Of a stretch of DNA of 64,000 nt, positions 18,652 through 32,825 are shown one piece after another (the stretch's first letter is position 1; every line of letters begins with the position of its first letter). Origin of the DNA: Flavobacterium sp. SM15 (lineage in GTDB: Bacteria > Bacteroidota > Bacteroidia > Flavobacteriales > Flavobacteriaceae); the NCBI RefSeq assembly GCF_022012335.1, contig NZ_JAKLTO010000001.1, positions 124,001 through 188,000 of the forward strand, read 5' to 3'. The position numbers and the translations under genes are program-made. Under the pieces are notes generated by a model. That model was not told where the DNA came from. It did no database searches and was given only the letters and a program-made list of their open reading frames with translations.

Positions 18652-18666
18652 TACTGGAGGTACCAC
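18652..18666. repeat. Putative attL core, 15-bp direct repeat TACTGGAGGTACCAC
   Basis: Identical in the same orientation to 32811-32825. The two copies enclose an element with its integrase just inside the right copy, and each is followed within six bases by a different rho-independent terminator. This is the pattern left by an integrase acting at the 3' end of a transcribed unit. Confidence 0.75.
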
Positions 18667-18747: not shown

Positions 18748-19219
18748 ACTCCTAACCACATAGGACAGGTATCTAATTCAATTATTTGTTTAGAAAAAGA
18801 AACATCTTGAATAATCCCCAATCACCTACAAATACTAAAGCATTTAACAACTCAACAGTAAAACTTTACATCCAAAAAGGAGGATTTCGTATGTAGGCTA
18901 AAAGTCCTGCAAAAGGAAACCCAAAACCTACATGCAACTAACCTAGAATCCTTAAAACCTGCTTAGAAAAGTATTGAAAATAGAACCCACCCCCTCTAAA
19001 AAATACCATTTCCTTTTTAAATACAACCCGTAATAATTGGGCATATATCCTGAAACCGGATAGTTTCTTTTCAAATATGTATTTACTCTTTTAAAAAACA
19101 AAAGAGAAACATTTACAAACCCTCTATTTCTATTACCCTTTCTTTGGCTGTTCGAAATTTTATACAAATCTTGTCGTTTTATCGAACAAATCTGCATTTT
19201 ATCGATTTTTGACTTTTTA
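18748..19219. other. Left end of the element, no supported gene
   Basis: About 470 bases without a convincing gene. It contains an inverted TGTAGG/CCTACA pair around 18892-18933 and, nearer the ATPase gene, TTTTATCGA twice (19177 and 19197). It probably holds the promoter of the ATPase pair. Confidence 0.45.
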
Positions 19220-19289
19220 ACAATAAAAAAATTGTCATTTTATTTGACAATAAAAAAATTGTTACTATTTTTGACAATAAAATAATTGT
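19220..19289 (+). repeat. Three palindromes at exact 27-bp period before the ATPase gene
   Basis: ACAAT-N6-ATTGT at 19220-19235, 19247-19262 and 19274-19289. The first two are identical; the third has one changed base in the spacer. The last ends three bases before the ATG. Constant phase and symmetry suggest a multimeric operator for a dimeric DNA-binding protein. Confidence 0.8.
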
Positions 19290-19292
19290 TAA

Positions 19293-20480
19293 ATGAGAAA
19301 TGTTGTAGGGCAAATAGCTTCAAAAGAAGATTTTTACTATCGTAAAAAAGAGATCGGAACAATCATGCGTAATTTAGATGCAAAAGCAAACATTCAAATT
19401 GCCGCCCCACGAAGAGTTGGGAAATCATCTATACTATACTACCTAAAAGACAATCCCTCAAAAGGATATATCAATCTTTATATTGAAGTAGAGAGCTCTC
19501 GAAGTAAAAACGATTATTACAGAAAGATATTTCGAGAGATTTTAAAAAGTGATGTGATAAGCTCTACAAAAAAAATAGCTGAACAGTTTAAATCAAATAA
19601 AAATGGTTTTCTAGGAAGACTTAAGGGAATAAAACTAGCCGGATTAGGATTTGATTTTACAGAACCCGAAGCTATTGATTATGAAGAAGAGCTAACTAAT
19701 CTCCTCTTAGGAATTGATTTAGGAGAAGACAAATTAATATTAATGATTGATGAATTTCCGGAAGTAATGTTAAATATAGTTGAAGACTGTAATGGAGACA
19801 TAGTTGAGGCAAAGAAATTCCTTCAATCAAACAGGGAATTAAGGAATAATCCAAAGCTACATGGAAGAATTCAGTTTATCTATACCGGATCAAACAGTCT
19901 TAATTTAACGGCAGCAAATCTAGAATCAACATCTTTAATCAATGACTTAACTGCCATTTCTGTAAATCCTTTATCCGCTGATGAAGCAAAAGACTTAATA
20001 TTAGAAATTTTAAAAACCTATAAATACACCATTTCACAAGAACAACTTGATTATATGGTGTCTCTTGTAGAATGGAATATCCCTTTCTATTTTCAATTAT
20101 TAATTCAGGAAATAATCAATCAAATTGAGCCAGAAGATATCATTACAAATAAGATAATAGATGAATCATTCTTTAAAATAATGGATCAAAGAAATGATCA
20201 TCATTTTGAGCACTACGTTAGAAGGCTAAAAAGAGTATTCAATGAAAAAGAATTAAGATTTGTCAAAATATTTTTAAATCAACTAGCTCAAAATGAAAAA
20301 ATATCAAAAGGGGATGCGCAAAATATGTCGCATGGAATATTAACAGAAAGTGAAACAAAGAAAGTACTCGAAGCCTTAAGGTATGACGGCTATGTAATTA
20401 ATCAAAGTGAAACCGGTAATTTAGAATACAAATTCAATTCTCCAATTTTAAAACAATGGTGGTATAATCATGAATGCTAA
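19293..20480 (+). CDS. Archaeal-type (AAA/STAND-like) ATPase, first gene of an ATPase pair
   Basis: 395 residues. Walker A at about 38-46 in the form APRRVGKSS, typical of the archaeal ATPase (pfam Arch_ATPase/AAA_35) group; Walker B LILMIDEFPE about 150-160; sensor-1-like IQFIYTGSNS about 190. The C-terminal third is a winged-helix region ending KFNSPILKQWW, common to this group. The stop overlaps the next gene by 11 bases, so the two are co-translated. With the palindromic array at its start codon, the winged helix may bind its own operator. The context (integrative element with CBASS) suggests phage defence; this is inference. Confidence 0.8.
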   Translation: MRNVVGQIASKEDFYYRKKEIGTIMRNLDAKANIQIAAPRRVGKSSILYYLKDNPSKGYINLYIEVESSRSKNDYYRKIFREILKSDVISSTKKIAEQFKSNKNGFLGRLKGIKLAGLGFDFTEPEAIDYEEELTNLLLGIDLGEDKLILMIDEFPEVMLNIVEDCNGDIVEAKKFLQSNRELRNNPKLHGRIQFIYTGSNSLNLTAANLESTSLINDLTAISVNPLSADEAKDLILEILKTYKYTISQEQLDYMVSLVEWNIPFYFQLLIQEIINQIEPEDIITNKIIDESFFKIMDQRNDHHFEHYVRRLKRVFNEKELRFVKIFLNQLAQNEKISKGDAQNMSHGILTESETKKVLEALRYDGYVINQSETGNLEYKFNSPILKQWWYNHEC

Positions 20481-23208
20481 AGAAGTAAATATATTTCTAC
20501 GAAATAACACAGGCAATAAAGCTAAAGAGGCACTTATTGACGGTTTTGTAATACGAACAAAAGTTTTCAACAATATTTTTTCCGAAATTATGTTGTCAAA
20601 AACCGATAAACCTGAGCAAAATTATCTTGTAATAGGTCAAAGAGGAGCCGGTAAGACAACATTGCTTTACCGTCTCAAATATGCTATTGAAGATGAGCCA
20701 AAGTTAAGCCCAAGGATCATCCCAATTATGTTTTCAGAAGAGCAATATAACTTAATGGATCTTATAAATTTATGGGAAAGCATTGCAGAACATCTAGAAG
20801 AACATGAAGGATTTGAATTTTTACAAAAAGAGATTACAAGTATAGATATAAATCATTCATACAGAGAGGAAGAAGCTTATGAATTAATTGAGAAAAAATT
20901 AAGTGATCTAAATAAAAAAGTTATAATCTTTATCGAAAACATTGATGTTTTTTTTAAAAAAATCGGCAAGAATGGGCAAAAAAGATTAAGGGAAGTATTA
21001 ACAACCTCTAAAACTATAAGGCTCATATGTTCGTCTACAACTTACTTTGAAGGCATAATAAATTATACAGATCCATTTTATGAGTTTTTTAAAATAATTC
21101 AATTAGACGGCTTAAATAGAGCCGACAGCGTAAAATTGTTAGGCAAATTAGCCGAGCAAAGAAATCAAACTTTACAAATTGAAGAAATAATAAATAATTA
21201 CCCAAAGAGACTTGAATCATTGAGAAGATTGACGGGTGGAAATCCTAGAATAATTTCGTATTTGTTTCAAATATTTTTAGATAACGAAGACGGGAGGGCA
21301 ATTATTGACTTATATAAATTATTAGATGATATAACTTATTTATATAAGGCAGAATTAGACCAACTTTCAGCTCAGCAACAAAAAATTGTAGATTCAATAG
21401 CAAGAAACTGGGATGCAATTTCTACGAAAGAAATATCTCAAAAAACAAATATAGATAGTAAACACATTTCTTCTATTTTAAACACTTTAGAAAAAAATCA
21501 AATTGTTGAAAGTGTCTCAACGAGAACTAAAAACAACTTATATCGTCTAAAAGATCGCTTTTTAAACATTTGGTATCTAATGCGATTTGGGAAGAAAAGA
21601 GAAAAAGAGAACGTTATTTGGTTAGTTCGCTTTTTTGACACTTGGTGTGACCAATCTGAATTATCTAAAAGAATCGACTCCCACATAATGAATCTCAAAG
21701 CAGGAAAATACGATGTTATTGCGGCTTTAGATATGGGAAATGTTTTTCTCTCGTGTGAAAATGTTCCACATGAACTGAAATATAATCTATATCAGACAAC
21801 TAAATCAGTCTTACCTAAGCAATTAATGAAAGACTTAATAATTTCTGATGATTCACTAGGTGATTCTATCCGAAAATTAGTTAAACAAAAAGATTGGGAA
21901 AAGGCTATTGAAGCTTTAACAGAAATCAAATCTACTGAAAAAAGATTAGCACTAACCAGTTGGATATATTTAAACAAAGGCGAAGTTAAAACCGCAATTG
22001 ATTCCCTCGAAGAGCTTTACAAAATATCTCCCGATGGGGATTTAGCATCTTTAATTGGGGATTTATATAAAATGGAACATTTGAGTAGCAAAGCCATTTA
22101 CTATTACAACGAAGCATTGAAATATGACATTTGGATTTCTTATCACAAATTAGGGGGGATCTATTCAAATGAATTAGGGAATTTCTCTGAAGCTGAAAAA
22201 TATTACAATTTAGCTATTGAACATAACATTGATGAGTCTTTAATAGAGTTAGCTGAAATTTATTTTTTAAATAACCAATTAACCCAAAGTCAAAAATTAA
22301 TTCAATCAGCAATTGTAAGTGGGAAAAAAGACTTAAAAAGCACCCTTGCTGCTATTTTTATGAGACAAGACAAAATTGAAGAAGCCATTTCAACCCTGGA
22401 AGAAGCCATCAAAGACGGCGAAAAGGATGCCCTATTAAATCTCGGAAAATTATATTTAACGAAAGATAATCCAGAAATAGAAAAAGCTAAAGAAATATTT
22501 GAAAATGCCATAAAAAAAGAAACTCCGGGAGCATATAATGCACTCGCAAAACTCTATTTAAAACAGGACAATAAAGAAGAAGCAGAAAAAGCATTATTAA
22601 AAGGTATAGAAAAGCATGATGCTGAGTCGGCACATTTATTAGCCCACTTATACATTGAAAAAGATAATTGGAAAAAGGGAGAACAATTTTTTCTAAAATC
22701 AATAAAATGGGGAAAAATTTCATCCATAATGTGTTTAGCAGAATCTGTTTTCTTTGAAAAAAAGAATGAAAAAAGAGAATTCATCCTAAATCTATTTGAA
22801 AAGCATTATCCAAAAATCCAAATTAAACCAGCGATGGTTATTGGATATGCAAGATTTCTTCTTTGGGATGATCAAATTGAGAAATCAATAAATATTATAA
22901 AACAAATCAACTCAAAATTAATCAATGTTCTTGAGAAAGATGGGGCAGATAAATCTAAAGAAAATATTATAGATGAATTAACTGTCTACTTAATACTATT
23001 AATATCTAAAGGTCAATTAAATATTGCATATGAGTTATTTTCCAACAATGAATTTGACTACAAACAAATTCTAAAGCCTGTTTATTATGCATTAATGAAT
23101 TATATGAAAGATGATTATCCCAATGAATATTTAAAAGCTGGAAATGAACTTAAGGAAACAATAGACGAAATAATAGAAGAAATAGAAAATTTTAAAAAAA
23201 ATTATTAA
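20470..23208 (+). CDS. Large ATPase with TPR/Sel1-like repeats, second gene of the pair
   Basis: 912 residues. N-terminal AAA domain with Walker A VIGQRGAGKTTLL (about 54-66), Walker B KVIIFIENIDVFF (about 156-168), sensor RLICSSTTYFEG and an R-L-T-G-G-N-P-R motif about 250. A winged helix follows (about 290-350, STKEISQKTNIDSKHISSIL). From about 480 to 780 come helical repeats spaced 33-36 residues (AIYYYNEALKYD, AEKYYNLAIEHN, AKEIFENAIKKE), i.e. TPR/Sel1-type. This ATPase-winged helix-TPR order is that of STAND sensors, where repeats recognise a trigger. No nuclease or other killing domain is visible, so the output must come from the partner or be unknown. Confidence 0.8.
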   Translation: MNAKEVNIFLRNNTGNKAKEALIDGFVIRTKVFNNIFSEIMLSKTDKPEQNYLVIGQRGAGKTTLLYRLKYAIEDEPKLSPRIIPIMFSEEQYNLMDLINLWESIAEHLEEHEGFEFLQKEITSIDINHSYREEEAYELIEKKLSDLNKKVIIFIENIDVFFKKIGKNGQKRLREVLTTSKTIRLICSSTTYFEGIINYTDPFYEFFKIIQLDGLNRADSVKLLGKLAEQRNQTLQIEEIINNYPKRLESLRRLTGGNPRIISYLFQIFLDNEDGRAIIDLYKLLDDITYLYKAELDQLSAQQQKIVDSIARNWDAISTKEISQKTNIDSKHISSILNTLEKNQIVESVSTRTKNNLYRLKDRFLNIWYLMRFGKKREKENVIWLVRFFDTWCDQSELSKRIDSHIMNLKAGKYDVIAALDMGNVFLSCENVPHELKYNLYQTTKSVLPKQLMKDLIISDDSLGDSIRKLVKQKDWEKAIEALTEIKSTEKRLALTSWIYLNKGEVKTAIDSLEELYKISPDGDLASLIGDLYKMEHLSSKAIYYYNEALKYDIWISYHKLGGIYSNELGNFSEAEKYYNLAIEHNIDESLIELAEIYFLNNQLTQSQKLIQSAIVSGKKDLKSTLAAIFMRQDKIEEAISTLEEAIKDGEKDALLNLGKLYLTKDNPEIEKAKEIFENAIKKETPGAYNALAKLYLKQDNKEEAEKALLKGIEKHDAESAHLLAHLYIEKDNWKKGEQFFLKSIKWGKISSIMCLAESVFFEKKNEKREFILNLFEKHYPKIQIKPAMVIGYARFLLWDDQIEKSINIIKQINSKLINVLEKDGADKSKENIIDELTVYLILLISKGQLNIAYELFSNNEFDYKQILKPVYYALMNYMKDDYPNEYLKAGNELKETIDEIIEEIENFKKNY

Positions 23209-23225
23209 TGTAGTATAATGTAAAA

Positions 23226-23334
23226 ATAAAAAAGCTCCAGAAAAGTACCAGTTTTCTGAAGCTATAAAGAATTGGATAATGAAAGCTTGAGACTTTACTT
23301 CACCGGATTACTCCGACTGTTACACCTATTCTAT
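23226..23334 (-). ncRNA. Probable small RNA, about 108 nt
   Basis: The minus strand shows a complete Bacteroidota promoter (TTTG at 23366-23369, 19-base spacer, TACCTTTG at 23339-23346). About 100 bases further comes a rho-independent terminator (AGCTTCAGAAAA/TTTTCTGGAGCT with TTTTTTATTTT, 23263-23226). No open reading frame of note lies between. An inner CGGA-gtaa-TCCG hairpin is visible. It lies between the ATPase pair and the CBASS operon and faces the ATPase genes' 3' end. The start is estimated from the promoter. Confidence 0.65.
23233..23263 (-). terminator. Rho-independent terminator of the small RNA
   Basis: Twelve-position stem with one mismatch, seven-base loop; the T-run follows on the minus strand only, so it does not serve the ATPase gene. 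Confidence 0.75.
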
Positions 23335-23338
23335 TGTA

Positions 23339-23369
23339 CAAAGGTAAACATTGAATGCCAATGTTCAAA
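23339..23369 (-). promoter_or_regulatory. Consensus Bacteroidota promoter of the small RNA
   Basis: -33 TTTG and -7 TACCTTTG separated by exactly 19 bases on the minus strand. Confidence 0.7.
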
Positions 23370-23472
23370 CCCTACACTACAATATTTCTTTTGTAAATCA
23401 ACAAGTCTCCGTCATCAGTATCCTCACCGACGTTATCAGATTGAGAAATAAATTTAATAAATCATAAAGAAT

Positions 23473-23742
23473 ATGGCATCAATTGTTACCTATGATATTC
23501 CATCAAAACATGTGGAATTCAAAAAAGAAATGTTTGCATTAGGCTATAAAGATCAAATCTCTGGAAAAACCTGCAAAATAATTTATTTCCCTAACACTAC
23601 CTTGTATCATCCAACCAACACTGCATATACTGCACGTGTTGAAGTTCAGAAAGTATGCAAAAAACTAAATGTAGAATTAGAAAGATGTATTGCAACCATA
23701 TGGGAAGATTGGTCAGCAATTTGCGGAGAGCCTTTTAAGTAA
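23473..23742 (+). CDS. Small protein of unknown function, possibly Cas2/VapD-like fold
   Basis: 89 residues starting MASIVTYDIPSKHVEFKK, then TCKIIYFPNTTLYHP and VCKKLNVELERCIATIWEDW. A first strand ending in Y-D-I-P and the alternation of strands and helices recall small ferredoxin-like proteins such as Cas2 or VapD, but no catalytic residues can be assigned. First of six plus-strand genes with gaps of 1-57 bases or overlaps that end with the CD-NTase and E2 genes, so it may be an accessory of that system or an independent small cassette. Confidence 0.65.
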   Translation: MASIVTYDIPSKHVEFKKEMFALGYKDQISGKTCKIIYFPNTTLYHPTNTAYTARVEVQKVCKKLNVELERCIATIWEDWSAICGEPFK

Positions 23743-23765: not shown

Positions 23766-24080
23766 ATGAGTAAATCAAGCCATTATTATATATCCGGTGT
23801 ATGGAAAGATACACACGGTAGAATTACAGATGTGATGTTAAACGAAGTAATCGATGACAGCTCGTTTAAAAAAGGGATAAAGAAAACCAAAGCTGAAGTT
23901 ATACAATTAATAAAGAACAACTATATAGTTAAAACTGTTGTTTGGGAATACCCTCGCTGGTCAATTGGCGCAAAGGTGTCCTATGAAACGGTAAATTATG
24001 TAGAGTATTTAAGAACAGTTCCTGATTTGAATATTAAAAACAATATAGATAATTCAATCAGAATGGAAGCCTTTTTTTAA
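23766..24080 (+). CDS. DUF3892-like protein
   Basis: 104 residues. The pattern YISGVWKDTHGRITDVMLNE, K-x-E-V-I-x-L-I about residues 43-51 and VSYETVNYVEYLRTVPD matches the short beta-alpha-beta DUF3892 family, whose function is unknown. It follows the Cas2-like small gene by 23 bases and precedes the 50-residue membrane protein. DUF3892 genes are often found in genomic islands. Probably co-transcribed with the neighbours. Confidence 0.65.
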   Translation: MSKSSHYYISGVWKDTHGRITDVMLNEVIDDSSFKKGIKKTKAEVIQLIKNNYIVKTVVWEYPRWSIGAKVSYETVNYVEYLRTVPDLNIKNNIDNSIRMEAFF

Positions 24081-24290: not shown

Positions 24291-24339
24291 AAAACATAAA
24301 GGGGTGAAATGCCCCTATTTATAAACTAAAAAAAATAAA

Positions 24340-25091
24340 ATGGGTGAATTATTAATTACAATTTTAAAAACACTTTTTACAAAAGGCGTTACAGTCTTAT
24401 GGGAAAACAAGAATAACCTTTCTCTGTATGTAAAAACACTATTCTGACATATCGAAATAAAGAAATCAGATTTTCTATTAGTTATCTTTTTCGAATAAAA
24501 ATTCCTAATACAAATTCTTATTTACTGGTTTTAAATAGAAGGATAGATAATCAATTACAACCAGTTGGAGGTGTTTACAAAAGATATGGGGACGATAAGC
24601 TATTCGAAAAATGGGAATATACACCGGACAGTAAGAAAAATGGACTTGATGTAGATGAAGAAAGCTCAGAAGATTTAAGATTTAAAGTAAAAGGCAAACA
24701 TGTCATAGATGTTATTAAGTGGTTCGAAGAAGGAAAAGAAAGAGAGATAAGCGCTGAACGAGAATTTTACGAAGAACTTTTAAAACCAGGAATTTTAGAT
24801 AAAAACATCTTTAACAATATTAAGTATAAGCATCTAAAAAGAGTTTCGAAAAATTTAAAATGGAGTGAACATTTCAGTTGTTATGAAGTTTTAATATATG
24901 ACATATTGGAGTTATTACCTTCAGAGCAGCAAAAGGAACATTTGAAACAATTAAGCACACAAAGCTTAGATTTAAACAAAGGATATGCTATTGTCAATTT
25001 TGACGATATAGAACAATTAAGATTGCTTAACAATGGTAAACAAATTGCAAGAATAGGCGAACACACTAAATTAACAATAAACAAAAATTAA
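24340..25091 (+). pseudogene. CBASS-associated NUDIX-like protein, split by a one-base frameshift
   Basis: The ATG at 24340 opens MGELLITILKTLFTKGVTVL and runs to a stop at 24447. From about 24430 another frame continues to 25091 with no start near its beginning: YRNKEIRFSISYLFRIKI, LVLNRRIDNQLQPVGGVYK, then the NUDIX-box-like EISAEREFYEELL. This order matches the SMODS-associated NUDIX (Sa_NUDIX) family. Adding one A to the A5 run at 24432-24436 joins the parts into a 250-residue protein. It ends one base before the CD-NTase gene. It may be a sequencing or assembly error, a phase-variable tract or a real loss of function. Confidence 0.65.
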
Positions 25092-25092
25092 T

Positions 25093-26262
25093 ATGATTGA
25101 TATATTCCATAATTATAGATTACAAAGAGAAGAGCTTTTAGCAAGAATTGCTCAAGAACTTCAATTAGATAAAACAAGGTTAGAAAAAATGGAAAGCGCA
25201 TATAATGCGGTTTATGATTTACTTAAAAAAGATGAGAGTTTCTTTCAAGATTTAGATATAGAGATATATGCTCAAGGATCAAAAAGAATTGGCACGACAG
25301 TTAAACCAATAAATGATGAAGATTTTGATTTGGATACTGTAATGCATATTTACGATTTATTTTCTAAATATAATCCAACTCAAATTTACGATGCTTTAGT
25401 TAAAGTAATTGAAAGCAATGATTACTATAAAAGTATCTATGAAAAAAAGGATAGATGTATTAGACTTAATTATAAAAGTGATTTTCATATGGATATATTG
25501 CCTGCATGTATGCAAGATATTTATGATAAAGAAAAAATTGCAATTCCTGAGAAACGATTGCAATCTTGGTCGTCTGGAAACCCAAAAGGATTTGCAGAAT
25601 GGTTTTTAAAAATTGCTGAAAGCATTCAGACATCCATGCTAAGATCTTATTCCGGGCAGCTATTAGAAGCAAAAATTGAATCTGAACCATTACCCGATGA
25701 ATTATACATTAAGACACCTTTACAAAGATCTGTACAGCTTATTAAAAGATACAGGGATCTATATTACCAAAATAGAGAATATCGAGTTTCAAGTATAGTA
25801 TTGACAACATTAATGGCGAGGTTTTATAATGGCGAAGAATCAATATTTGATTCTATTGACAATATTACTACGAAAATTAAAAGCAGTTATTTGAATGCGG
25901 TAAATTCCAACTTAAGATTCAAAGTACTTAATCCTGTTGACGAAAATGAAGATTTTACCGACTCATGGACTAATAAACATTACCAAAGCTTTTACACCTT
26001 TATTGATGATTTTTACAATAATTGGCAAAAATTAAAAGATGATTTTGAAATAAGTGGCAAAGATTACATTGAATTGTTCGGAGAGGGGATTTATAAAAAA
26101 TCATTAACTGAGCAGATAAAAACCTTCTCAAACAGCTCTACAGATGTTTTTGCAAAAGCTAATGGATTAATCTTAGGAAACAATGCTTTTACTAATCCAC
26201 AAGGACAAATTAACGAAACTAAAGGAACAAAGAATGAGCCTCATCACAATTTTGGAGAATAA
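25093..26262 (+). CDS. CD-NTase (SMODS-type nucleotidyltransferase) of a CBASS system
   Basis: 389 residues. Makes a cyclic (oligo)nucleotide signal on phage infection in known systems. The nucleotidyltransferase core is clear: helix, then QGSKRIGTTVKP with G-S at 62-63, acidic DEDFDLD with the metal-binding pair probably D79/D81, and the third acid in FHMDILPA about residue 137. A helical C-terminal domain (TPLQRSVQLIKRYRDLYY) follows. Length and motif spacing fit CD-NTases rather than poly(A) polymerase or MenA/AbiEii toxins. Neighbours are a NUDIX-like gene before it and an overlapping E2-like gene after it. Confidence 0.85.
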   Translation: MIDIFHNYRLQREELLARIAQELQLDKTRLEKMESAYNAVYDLLKKDESFFQDLDIEIYAQGSKRIGTTVKPINDEDFDLDTVMHIYDLFSKYNPTQIYDALVKVIESNDYYKSIYEKKDRCIRLNYKSDFHMDILPACMQDIYDKEKIAIPEKRLQSWSSGNPKGFAEWFLKIAESIQTSMLRSYSGQLLEAKIESEPLPDELYIKTPLQRSVQLIKRYRDLYYQNREYRVSSIVLTTLMARFYNGEESIFDSIDNITTKIKSSYLNAVNSNLRFKVLNPVDENEDFTDSWTNKHYQSFYTFIDDFYNNWQKLKDDFEISGKDYIELFGEGIYKKSLTEQIKTFSNSSTDVFAKANGLILGNNAFTNPQGQINETKGTKNEPHHNFGE

Positions 26263-26677
26263 AAGAATAGAAAATTATAAAAAAAACTATCGCATTTTAT
26301 TGGAAATTGAAAAATACAACGTTGAGAAAAATTGTAATTGGTTAAATATTGAAATAAAAAATAGAGTTCTAACCGGAAAAGGAACATTAAAAATTGGTGG
26401 TAAAACTTATCCGATTGAACTCTATTATTCTCCTTTTTTTATCGACACAATAAGAAGATTTGACCTGATTTACATTAGAGATAAAAATATCCAATATAAC
26501 AGTAATATACATTTGTATGGAGATTTAAGCCTTTGTCTCTACCATCCAAAAATTGACAAACCAATGTTAGGAACAATACCTTTAGCAAGAATGATTCCCT
26601 GGATATCTGAATGGTGTGTTCATTACGAAGAATGGAAGAAATATGGTGTATGGCTTGGAAGGGAAATAAAGCACTAA
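26234..26677 (+). CDS. E2-like (ubiquitin-conjugating-enzyme fold) CBASS accessory protein
   Basis: 147 residues from the ATG preceded by AAAGGA; it overlaps the CD-NTase end by 29 bases. The bacterial E2 signature H-x-Y-G-D-x-S-L-C-L-Y-x-P is present (HLYGDLSLCLYHP), with the catalytic Cys about residue 101 and His about 93, and aromatic residues in the tail (WISEWCVHYEEWKKYG). In type II short CBASS, such E2-only proteins form a covalent link to the CD-NTase C-terminus and modulate it. No E1 or JAB peptidase gene is nearby, which fits that short subtype. Confidence 0.8.
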   Translation: MSLITILENKRIENYKKNYRILLEIEKYNVEKNCNWLNIEIKNRVLTGKGTLKIGGKTYPIELYYSPFFIDTIRRFDLIYIRDKNIQYNSNIHLYGDLSLCLYHPKIDKPMLGTIPLARMIPWISEWCVHYEEWKKYGVWLGREIKH

Positions 26678-28372: not shown

Positions 28373-28464
28373 AGTAACAGCAATGTTAGATTATAACATT
28401 ACAGAAACAAGAACAACTTAAAAAAGGGAAATAACATATTTTTCCAAGTATGGCTCATTGTTTT

Positions 28465-28517
28465 AGCACCTTCGCCTGTTTAGGCAGGTTGCTATCCCAC
28501 CGAAGGGATTCGTAATG
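28465..28517 (-). promoter_or_regulatory. Structured 5' leader with SAM-riboswitch-like signature (tentative)
   Basis: On the minus strand the transcript expected to start near 28517 folds as ATCCC/GGGAT followed by AGCAACC-stem-AGGTGCTAAA, the stem being GCCT/AGGC with flanking CCT/AGG. G-C-A-A-C-C followed by G-G-T-G-C-T-A-A is the shared core of SAM-I/IV clan riboswitches. The P2 pseudoknot region of the class is not evident, so the match is partial. The aptamer-like part may extend to about 28450 (TCATT/AATGA closing stem). Confidence 0.3.
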
Positions 28518-28716
28518 ATTAACAAATATAAAAACTCTATTTATTTAAACAAGTTTTTACGTCAATAAATAGACCATAATTACCGTTTAACACCTCAACT
28601 AGTTCTTTTGCTACTATCTACTATATTTGGATAGTTAACCTTAAAGTGAATTTACACCATTTAAAAATCATTAAAATAATTCACACTATTTACTTAATCA
28701 GTAACTAAAAAATATC
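28518..28716. other. Spacer between the polymerase-like gene and the structured leader
   Basis: No gene. A perfect ten-base inverted repeat TCTATTTATT/AATAAATAGA (28536-28573) overlaps the promoter. It may act as an operator. Otherwise AT-rich. Confidence 0.4.
28523..28553 (-). promoter_or_regulatory. Promoter of the gene ending at 27950
   Basis: -7 TATATTTG (28523-28530) and -33-like CTTG 19 bases upstream, on the minus strand. Confidence 0.5.
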
Positions 28717-31323: not shown

Positions 31324-32616
31324 TTAATCGTAAAAACCAGAATCAACTAAATGAGAAGCTCTCTCTTCTCCTTGAATTCTAATATACTTATAAAACTCAC
31401 GTTCTGTGGTGTGTCCTGAAAAAAACATTATATCCATCGCCGACTTCCCAGATTTATATTTGTTAGTACAGAAACTTCTTCTAGCTGTATGTGTTTTAAT
31501 CAATTCATATTTCGGATGTACTTCAATTAATTCCTTTCCCCCTTTGGTAGATTTACAAACAATTTTTTCATCAATCCCTGCCATTTGTCCCACTTGTTTT
31601 AAATAATCATTTATTCTTTGTTCAACCATCTTAGCCGGTGGAAATCCGTCATAACGTTCATTCATTATCTTTCTAATATGAGGCTCAACTAAACAATTAA
31701 CTGTTTTACCTGTCTTCTGTTGCTTAATTCTAAAATACTCTCTCCCTCCTATTTCAATTATATTACTTGCAGTTAAACCATTATAATCACTTATTCTCTG
31801 TCCAGTGCTTAATCCTATTAAAAAAATATCTCTAGCTCTTTCCAAATCCTTGTACTTAGATAAATCCAACTTTAAAATTTTATCAATCTCTAAATCTGTC
31901 AAATATATTTCCGTAGTCTGTTCTGTCGAAGTCCTGAAATCTCTCCCTTTAAATTTTTGATTAACATTATAACCATCTGAAACAGCGGAATTAAGTATTC
32001 CTTTTAAATTTTTTGTATGCTTTACAATCGTGTTTTGTGAAAAATTTTCTTCCTCTAGAAATTTTTTAAATTGATTATAAAAAACTTGGTCAAACGTTTC
32101 AAAGTCAACTTTTATACTATATCGTTCAGAAAAATTCCTTAATTTTTCAATAGTTTGTCTATATGACCTTATTGTAATAATACTTATTGTAGATTTTTTC
32201 AACTCAATAAAGAGTTCAGCATAAGCAAAGAAATCTAATTTCCCGCCATCCTTAACCTCAACAAAATTCTTGTTTGTAAACGAATCTAATTTTGATTTTA
32301 AAGCTTCTTTTGTAACTGGAATCTGTTCAGATATCAATCTAGAGACTTCTCTGTTAAGTTCATTCTCTAAGTCTGTCAGAAAGTCGTTCAGATTGTCTCT
32401 ATCTAAAATACCTGCTTTGTTTCTCACTCTTTGTTTCTCGGAATCCCAATTTTCAAAGCAAACCTTAAAACCAGTTGAATACTTAAATCTTAATGCTCCA
32501 TAACTAAAGTGCATTAAAAGGAGTGAATCTCTTCTTTTATCCCTTTTAAGCTCAGATAGAGGTTCTTTAAATGCAAACCTCACTGTCCCTTTACTTCTTT
32601 CAGTAGTCACTCTCAT
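31324..32616 (-). CDS. Tyrosine recombinase / integrase of the 14-kb element
   Basis: 430 residues. N-terminal arm-binding region, SAM-like core-binding domain about 115-215, catalytic domain with Arg in LSTGQRISDY, His-x-x-Arg in HTARRSF and Tyr in REFYKYIRI; S-G-H precedes the Tyr. It lies just inside the right copy of the 15-bp repeat and points inward, the standard layout for an element inserted at that site. Expected partners are the excisionase-like protein at 30042-30308 and the arm sites near both ends. Confidence 0.92.
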   Translation of the reverse strand: MRVTTERSKGTVRFAFKEPLSELKRDKRRDSLLLMHFSYGALRFKYSTGFKVCFENWDSEKQRVRNKAGILDRDNLNDFLTDLENELNREVSRLISEQIPVTKEALKSKLDSFTNKNFVEVKDGGKLDFFAYAELFIELKKSTISIITIRSYRQTIEKLRNFSERYSIKVDFETFDQVFYNQFKKFLEEENFSQNTIVKHTKNLKGILNSAVSDGYNVNQKFKGRDFRTSTEQTTEIYLTDLEIDKILKLDLSKYKDLERARDIFLIGLSTGQRISDYNGLTASNIIEIGGREYFRIKQQKTGKTVNCLVEPHIRKIMNERYDGFPPAKMVEQRINDYLKQVGQMAGIDEKIVCKSTKGGKELIEVHPKYELIKTHTARRSFCTNKYKSGKSAMDIMFFSGHTTEREFYKYIRIQGEERASHLVDSGFYD

Positions 32617-32810: not shown

Positions 32811-32825
32811 TACTGGAGGTACCAC
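32811..32825. repeat. Putative attR core, 15-bp direct repeat
   Basis: Second copy of TACTGGAGGTACCAC; core chromosome resumes immediately to its right. Confidence 0.75.

What the first reader, a model, noticed from the sequence alone, without database searches (positions are those of the whole stretch)
19293..23208. Two-gene ATPase operon as a possible undescribed defence system
A 395-residue archaeal-type ATPase overlaps by 11 bases a 912-residue protein with its own AAA domain, winged helix and TPR/Sel1-type repeats. Two co-translated ATPases with a repeat-based sensor resemble STAND-type sensing, but no nuclease or membrane effector is visible. They sit in an integrative element directly before CBASS genes, which suggests defence cargo.
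Basis: inference. Interest (0 to 1): 0.62.

Follow-up and report, generated by a model that had tools for sequence, protein, structure and literature searches.

The report
Self-regulated ATPase switch beside immune operons
Two overlapping genes for NLR-like ATPases, found in several bacterial phyla, sit behind a conserved repeated DNA-binding site in their own promoter, and in the branch that includes this window they stand in front of different antiviral operons, which suggests a new kind of switch for bacterial immunity.

Summary
The pair is real: A (395 aa) and B (912 aa) overlap by 11 nt. Both model as STAND ATPases (NTPase plus winged helix); B adds a TPR sensor. A lies directly before B in 88 of 100 B genes from several phyla, with no recurring third gene. 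(1) Tandem palindromes (TGACAAT-N6-ATTGTCA, 27-nt period) lie across the promoter: 57 of 98 loci have at least two spaced 26-28 nt, against 7 of 979 control upstream regions. (2) B's nearest relatives form a clade of ten (SH-aLRT 100), and all ten lie upstream, same strand, of a known or predicted immune operon: CBASS of several kinds (5), MBL/E1-E2-JAB (3), multi-TIR (2). Four of these were found after the idea was formed, and fitted. A long-branch eleventh member (L162), left out of that tree, shows no such operon. Eight of the ten lack A beside B yet keep the repeats. Outside this clade defence genes are not enriched. Best reading: an autoregulated STAND sensor that here accompanies, and probably controls or triggers, immune operons. 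No effector was found; nothing was tested at the bench. 'Undescribed defence system' is partly supported.

The parts
18652..18666 (+). left copy of the 15-nt direct repeat TACTGGAGGTACCAC (probable attL)
   Evidence: two copies in the genome
19218..19237 (+). operator-like palindrome, unit 1 (TAACAAT-N6-ATTGTCA)
19245..19264 (+). operator-like palindrome, unit 2 (TGACAAT-N6-ATTGTTA)
   Evidence: 27 nt after unit 1
19272..19291 (+). operator-like palindrome, unit 3, ending just before the start codon of A
   Evidence: 27 nt after unit 2
19243..19273 (+). promoter-like TTTG-N19-TATTTTTG (Bacteroidota type, form recalled) spanning units 2-3
   Evidence: sequence; statistics
19293..20480 (+). A: STAND-like ATPase with C-terminal winged helix, no sensor domain
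20470..23208 (+). B: STAND ATPase, winged helix, TPR sensor; Walker B Glu-Asn
23233..23263 (.). imperfect inverted repeat just after B
23473..23742 (+). 89-aa ORF, no family
23766..24080 (+). DUF3892 protein; a relative closes the CBASS operon of L069
24325..25091 (+). 2TM-NUDIX CBASS effector gene, broken into two frames
25093..26262 (+). CBASS CD-NTase
   Evidence: E 1.2e-171
26183..26677 (+). CBASS E2-like protein
   Evidence: E 1.4e-47
31324..32616 (-). tyrosine integrase of the element
32811..32825 (+). right copy of the 15-nt repeat (probable attR)

Best explanation
A and B form an autoregulated STAND switch. B is a sensor: its TPR superhelix holds the ATPase closed (inferred from STAND biology), and its winged helix probably reads the tandem 27-nt operators across the operon's own promoter and keeps A and B scarce (inferred). 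When the TPR domain meets its trigger, B opens, binds ATP and multimerises, with or without A (inferred). In the clade of this window B acts as upstream regulator or trigger of the neighbouring immune operon (CBASS, E1-E2-JAB or multi-TIR), either by changing its expression or by touching its proteins (inferred; the choice is open). Shown by sequence and models: the pair, the repeat array and its conservation, the STAND architecture, the position before immune operons, and the loss of A in part of the clade. Not shown: DNA binding, autoregulation, trigger, phage resistance.
For: STAND folds. A directly before B in 88 of 100. Lag 27 is the best self-match in 66 of 98 upstream regions against 25 of 561 controls; two or more operator-like palindromes spaced 26-28 nt in 57 of 98 against 7 of 979; the array coincides with promoter-like elements and is unique in the genome up to matches with three mismatches. 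Clade of ten B proteins, SH-aLRT 100, 10 of 10 before an immune operon (operons), including four of four found after the idea was formed. Solo B keeps the array in genomes without any A (L068, L069, L070). B residue 332 in the recognition helix tends to follow operator base 5.
Against: No operator-like palindrome between B and the immune operon in six clade loci, so the immune operon is not visibly under the same operator. Outside the clade no enrichment of defence genes. L162, a long-branch relative inside the first clade, has no immune operon by reading of its ORFs and was left out of the second tree. Co-variation is not significant after correction for the tree, and mutual information for the recognition helix is only p 0.05-0.10. 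32 of 98 upstream regions have another best period or no clear array. The trees are quick ones without bootstrap.
Confidence: 0.55

Rival explanations
1. A-B is a complete defence system of its own, Avs-like: B senses a phage component, the A-B multimer itself kills or blocks, and it merely shares islands with CBASS and other systems.
For: STAND architecture; Avs3 among the Foldseek hits of B (8dgc, E 1.2e-7); mobile element and plasmid copies; next to Qat genes on a Moraxella plasmid.
Against: No effector domain found in A or B and no recurring third gene; no defence enrichment outside the clade; solo B without A in the most immune-linked members.
Confidence: 0.2
2. A-B is an ordinary autoregulated STAND regulator of host physiology, unrelated to defence in most lineages; the immune link of one clade is a local by-product of insertion sites or islands.
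For: Stable chromosomal neighbours in several genera; neighbours outside the clade like controls.
Against: 10 of 10 clade members, with three unrelated kinds of immune operon, same strand and, in nine of ten, the immune gene as the next gene 210-454 nt away. Sporadic distribution: 29 of 395 genomes of the phylum.
Confidence: 0.15
3. A-B is a toxin-antitoxin-like addiction module: one protein is toxic, the operon is autorepressed through tandem operators.
For: Two overlapping genes with a multi-operator promoter, partly on mobile DNA.
Against: B occurs without A anywhere in the genome in L068, L069, L070, L079 and L139; no toxin fold among the hits.
Confidence: 0.05
4. A-B is an ORC- or TnsC-like DNA-loading ATPase pair and the 27-nt repeats are iterons for replication, partition or transposition.
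For: Fold similarity to ORC/Cdc6 (B: 1w5t Z 17.2, rmsd 5.6, 334 aligned) and TnsC (A: 9g0f Z 15.6, rmsd 4.4, 267 aligned); tandem repeats.
Against: The repeats lie at the promoter of the pair and coincide with promoter elements; no recurring replication or transposase partner.
Confidence: 0.05

Closest known systems
STAND ATPases with TPR sensor (PH0952, PDB 6mfv; MalT)
   Same: NTPase, winged-helix domain, helical TPR sensor; 6mfv is B's best Foldseek hit (E 7e-10). PMC6468293 (passages) describes closed ADP and multimeric ATP forms.
   Different: PH0952 has an extra N-terminal DNA-binding effector domain and MalT a C-terminal one (PMC6468293, passages); B has none, is paired with a second ATPase, and B's Walker B reads Asp/Glu-Asn.
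Avs (AVAST) defence proteins
   Same: STAND core with C-terminal sensor; Avs3 among B's Foldseek hits and Avs5 among A's matches (9jap, Z 14.2, rmsd 4.4, 275 aligned).
   Different: No fused nuclease, protease or SIR2 effector found in A or B.
Regulators upstream of immune operons: CapK-CapS, CapW
   Same: Gene(s) directly upstream of diverse immune operons; CapS binds palindromes at its own promoter and at that of the operon (PMC13373217, passages; CapW from the search listing of PMC9122588).
   Different: Those are a kinase with a wHTH repressor, and a WYL factor; B is a STAND ATPase with TPRs, and no operator was seen before the immune operon.
Archaeal-type STAND-like ATPases (PAB2304, Sso1545)
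   Same: A matches over most of its length (Z 25.6 and 24.3).
   Different: No function for these is known to me; A is tied to B by operon structure.
MADS mad8 ATPase
   Same: Weak PADLOC match of B's ATPase region (E 4.7e-4).
   Different: No other mad family at E up to 0.1 among the ten window proteins scanned.

Membership tests
STAND NTPases | P-loop NTPase with Walker A and B | tested here: met
   A: Lys44 in 64 of 65 rows (one gap), Asp-Glu in 65 of 65; B: Gly-Lys-Thr in 41 of 41, Asp/Glu-Asn in 40 of 41
STAND NTPases | winged-helix domain after the NTPase module | tested here: met
   models of A and B; A aligns over its whole length to STAND cores including resistosomes at Z 19-20
STAND NTPases | C-terminal repeat sensor | tested here: met
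   B: TPR families and helical repeats; A has none, and several B relatives lack or vary it
STAND NTPases | ADP/ATP switch and multimerisation on inducer | not testable with these tools
   needs biochemistry
Avs defence | effector domain fused to the STAND core | tested here: not met
   no such Pfam domain in A or B
Avs defence | recognition of phage terminase or portal | not testable with these tools
   needs binding assay
CBASS | CD-NTase plus effector | tested here: not met
   A and B are neither; they are neighbours of CBASS in 5 of the 10 clade members
Upstream immune-operon regulator (works like CapK-CapS, CapW) | lies directly upstream of diverse immune operons | tested here: met
   10 of 10 rows of the B clade, three kinds of operon; not met in the wider family; L162 left out
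Upstream immune-operon regulator (works like CapK-CapS, CapW) | operator at its own promoter | tested here: met
   sequence array only; binding not tested
Upstream immune-operon regulator (works like CapK-CapS, CapW) | operator at the immune operon's promoter | tested here: not met
   no like palindrome in six clade loci; another motif is not excluded
MADS | mad gene cluster | tested here: not met
   only mad8 at 4.7e-4 among ten window proteins
ORC/TnsC-type DNA-loading ATPases | association with replication origin or transposase genes | tested here: inconclusive
   no recurring neighbour of this kind, but fold similarity exists

The most novel reading that the evidence does not exclude
B is a plug-in immune switch. 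An ancient, phylum-spanning pair of STAND ATPases that represses itself through a tandem 27-nt operator gave rise, in Bacteroidota, to a stand-alone STAND-TPR protein that lost its partner A, retuned its operator (CAA to CGA half-sites) and now sits in front of, and gates, unrelated antiviral operons: CBASS of several types, ubiquitin-like E1-E2-JAB, and multi-TIR. It would be an NLR-like sensor shared between immune pathways as a detachable front end.
Probability: 0.38. Interest if true: 0.85.

Novelty: new variant of a known kind. Interest (0 to 1): 0.7.

Why it matters
How bacteria keep suicidal immune operons silent until needed, and what tells CBASS that a phage has arrived, are open questions in many systems. 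A conserved STAND sensor with its own recognisable operator, found in front of CBASS, ubiquitin-like and TIR operons, would be a testable candidate for such a front end and another link between bacterial immunity and NLR-type sensing. The repeat array also gives a sequence handle for finding the family in new genomes.

Tried and rejected
A third conserved gene (missing effector): clustering 1053 neighbour ORFs gave no family at a fixed position across lineages; the clusters that appeared were, by my reading of their sequences, housekeeping genes within one genus, ABC-F proteins and recombinases.

CBASS as the constant partner: rejected, because five of the ten clade members have other immune operons.

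Operator copies in front of the immune operon: none in six clade loci (window, L067-L071); the only like match in that call is in L083, outside the clade. The stretch after B is conserved within pairs of relatives: L068/L070 75% over 196 nt, L194/L195 77% over 170, L196/L197 90% over 163; its role is unknown.

Co-variation of operator and winged helix: suggestive only. For B's recognition helix the mutual-information test gave p 0.05-0.10, for A's 0.09-0.92; the independent-pairs test was not significant.

Empty site of the element: three other genomes of 61 held one exact copy of the repeat; only a short stretch around the repeat matched the window's right flank in two of them, so no empty site was shown.

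Viral origin: none found in viral contigs (2 stretches; 91 stretches; no relative) or phage records.

Literature: no paper seen that describes this pair or array. Full-text searches; passages seen in PMC13373217, PMC7159879, PMC6468293, PMC13092281; the rest as search listings. The library holds open-licence papers only, so this is weak evidence of absence.

Rows dropped before counts: L078 and L145 repeat L058 and L045; they are in the 100 but not in the trees and array counts. L165 was left out of both trees and the array counts; L162 (long branch) and the repeats L204 and L206 were left out of the second tree. Four very large downstream proteins were left out of A10 (134 of 138 used). Of 17 weaker hits, eight were fetched as outgroup controls; 24 downstream proteins from seven of these were scanned.
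Full report
WHAT WAS CHECKED. The two ORFs are as described: A 19293-20480 (395 aa) and B 20470-23208 (912 aa), same strand, 11 nt shared. Pfam sees only sub-threshold AAA domains in A; in B it sees TPRs (best 1.5e-16) and a sub-threshold match to nSTAND_NTPase5. PADLOC has nothing for A up to E 0.1 and for B ten weak matches, best 3.6e-5, mostly to winged-helix parts, with mad8 at 4.7e-4. The pair lies in a probable 14.2-kb element bounded by a 15-nt repeat that occurs only twice in the genome, with a tyrosine integrase inside one end. A CBASS cyclase and E2 follow. The window's genome is of the class of Runella: a genome listed as 'same class' (G288) has a contig of the same length as Runella aurantiaca NZ_QPIW01000001.

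STRUCTURE. A models at mean pLDDT 90.3 and matches archaeal ATPases PAB2304 (Z 25.6, rmsd 3.4, 324 aligned) and Sso1545 (Z 24.3, rmsd 3.7, 328 aligned), then plant resistosomes and CED-4 at Z 19-20. B models at 85.4: NTPase, winged helix, then helices to the end. Its best Foldseek hit is the STAND protein with TPR sensor 6mfv (E 7e-10, low TM-scores, as the superhelix bends), with Avs3, ORC and Apaf-1 lower; by VIA-align its first 375 residues match archaeal ORC2 (1w5t, Z 17.2, rmsd 5.6, 334 aligned) and its C-terminal half matches TPR proteins. So A is a STAND core without sensor and B a STAND core with sensor. A's Walker B is Asp-Glu in 65 of 65 rows; B has Asp/Glu followed by Asn in 40 of 41. 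My inference is that A hydrolyses ATP well and B poorly.

THE PAIR. Relatives are sporadic: 2 of 101 genomes of the genus carry B at E 1e-20, 29 of 395 of the phylum and 5 of 249 of the family carry A at 1e-12 (the window's own genome counted in each). A genome-contig scan with B found 218 relatives among 280 pattern hits; the best 80 were kept, from Bacteroidota, Pseudomonadota, Campylobacterota, Bacillota, Fusobacteriota, Cloacimonadota and others. In 100 B ORFs, A is the directly upstream gene on the same strand in 88, often overlapping (8, 11, 14 or 20 nt are common). Two of the 100 are repeat loci. Of the 12 others, three begin at a contig end (L077, L125, L144), L086 has A by tblastn and L080 a trace of it, leaving seven without A: L068, L069, L070, L071, L079, L114 and L139. 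Whole-genome search finds no A in the genomes of L068, L069, L070, L079 and L139; those of L071 and L114 have A elsewhere. B is 521-1156 aa long because the TPR stretch varies or is missing (a few are cut by contig ends). No third gene recurs at a fixed place.

THE REPEAT ARRAY. Before A's start codon lie three palindromes (TAACAAT or TGACAAT, N6, ATTGTCA or ATTGTTA) at 19218, 19245 and 19272, 27 nt apart. The same design stands before A in many relatives. Lag 27 is the best self-match in 66 of 98 upstream regions, 50 of them at p 0.05 or less against shuffles; among 561 control upstream regions from the same loci the numbers are 25 and 4 (fewer shuffles for controls). At least two operator-like palindromes 26-28 nt apart occur in 57 of 98 targets and 7 of 979 controls. 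The array coincides with promoter-like elements: TTTG-N18-21-TAnnTTTG in 22 of 51 Bacteroidota targets against 3 of 602 controls, and a sigma70-like pair in 16 of 47 other targets against 0 of 377 (consensus forms recalled; unnamed relatives without a phylum label are counted as 'other'). In the window's genome the double unit occurs exactly only here; three other places match with three mismatches. 32 of the 98 have another best period (such as 26, 28, 30 or 38) or no clear array. Tandem palindromes across a promoter are the usual mark of autorepression. That is inference; binding was not tested.

THE IMMUNE LINK. In a tree of B cores (104 rows, quick IQ-TREE, SH-aLRT only) seven rows around the window form a starred set, five of them CBASS-linked. 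PADLOC and Pfam identify cyclase + E2 + 2TM effector (window, L067), cyclase + HORMA + TRIP13 + 2TM effector (L069), cyclase + E2 + patatin (L070), cyclase + TIR effector (L068), and MBL + E2/JAB protein (L071). L083, in a neighbouring clade, also has CBASS, about 2.5 kb after B. To test the idea I searched two more families for B relatives and fetched the four new hits at 42-47% identity over nearly the whole length, before looking at their neighbours. All four are solo B, 210-301 nt upstream on the same strand of a predicted immune operon: MBL + E2-ThiF-JAB + a third gene (L194, L195), and a run of six ThsB-like TIR proteins with a SLOG protein (L196, L197); families were scanned for L194 and L196, and L195 and L197 follow by similarity and order. 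With these the clade has ten rows, SH-aLRT 100, ten of ten immune-linked. In nine the next gene on that strand belongs to the immune operon; in the window two small ORFs come first. L162, a long-branch row inside the first set, with a 108-aa remnant of A and no immune operon by reading of its ORFs, was left out of the second tree; counted in, it would be ten of eleven. The eight solo-B members keep the array: lag 27 or 26 with p up to 0.03 in L068-L071, and by eye, with mostly CGA half-sites, in L194-L197. L067 is cut by its contig end.

RESULTS AGAINST A GENERAL DEFENCE ROLE. For 57 loci outside the near group, 134 downstream proteins match 36 PADLOC families at 1e-15, with no cyclase among the 25 shown; 134 genes further away in such loci match 29. 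Seven outgroup loci gave one match in 24 proteins, to a mad2 model. Clusters of 3-4 loci represented by Runella, Marinomonas, Pseudoalteromonas and family-f18 loci keep the same neighbours at fixed offsets. So most of the family is not visibly tied to defence.

WHICH PROTEIN READS THE ARRAY. Solo B keeps the array without A, so B (or an unlinked factor) should suffice. B's recognition-helix residue 332 tends to follow operator base 5: Asn, within Ser-Lys-Asn, with CGA in seven solo-B loci (three, four; one clade, so few events), Thr with CTA in 9 of 11 loci. But Asn and Thr also occur with CAA (4 and 8 loci), other columns score as well, and after correction for the tree the result is not significant.

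MECHANISM. The best reading is an autoregulated STAND sensor. STAND biology (PMC6468293, listing and passages) predicts a closed ADP form held by arm and sensor, and an ATP multimer after inducer binding. In this clade the multimer, or released B, would raise or trigger the neighbouring immune operon. No like palindrome lies between B and the immune operon in six clade loci, so protein contact or read-through is as likely as classical regulation.

NOVELTY. Regulators upstream of immune operons are known (CapK-CapS, PMC13373217, passages; CapW, PMC9122588, listing), and STAND regulators are known. A STAND-TPR protein in that position, its partner ATPase and the 27-nt array were not met in ten full-text searches of an open-licence library.

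Noticed in passing
window 24325-25091 (+): The 2TM-NUDIX effector gene of the CBASS operon is broken: its N-terminal part and its NUDIX part lie in different frames. The NUDIX part alone matches PADLOC 2TM effectors (E 3.5e-86). CBASS may be dead here, or the gene may be misread.
   Followed up: partly
window 28428-28523 (-): A SAM-I/IV riboswitch (Rfam, 54 bits) lies inside the integrative element, upstream of a 140-aa ORF without a family.
   Followed up: no
window 18652 and 32811; L065, L066: The 15-nt repeat is followed by a hairpin and T-run at both ends of the element and in two other genomes of the genus, so the integration site may be the end of some transcript.
   Followed up: partly
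L009 3596-11280: On Moraxella plasmid pNP7-2 the A-B pair lies about 3 kb after genes annotated as a deazaguanine synthase and QatD of the Qat defence system.
   Followed up: no
L196 4153-8941 and L197: Runs of six ThsB-like TIR proteins plus a SLOG (LD_cluster3) protein in one operon (PADLOC and Pfam on L196); no ThsA was seen in the genes read. Possibly a multi-TIR defence system.
   Followed up: partly
L071, L194, L195: Three-gene operon of an MBL-fold protein, an E2/E1/JAB protein and a third protein without a family, without a cyclase: a predicted ubiquitin-like defence operon.
   Followed up: partly
L083 13274-13918 (+): A LexA-like HTH + S24 peptidase gene lies between B and the CBASS operon, a possible second regulator.
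   Followed up: no
L159 12393-16583 (+): A 1396-aa ORF near an A-B pair begins like Cas9 (recognised by eye; not searched).
   Followed up: no
family-f18 loci L047-L054: In this Bacteroidota lineage A and B are about 20% identical to the window's and the upstream repeats differ (TGCCAAC-type half-sites, period 38 in two), so the operator seems to have been rebuilt.
   Followed up: no
window 23208-23473; L068/L070, L194/L195, L196/L197: The 160-200 nt after B are conserved within pairs of relatives (75-90%), also where the downstream immune operons differ (L068 and L070).
   Followed up: partly
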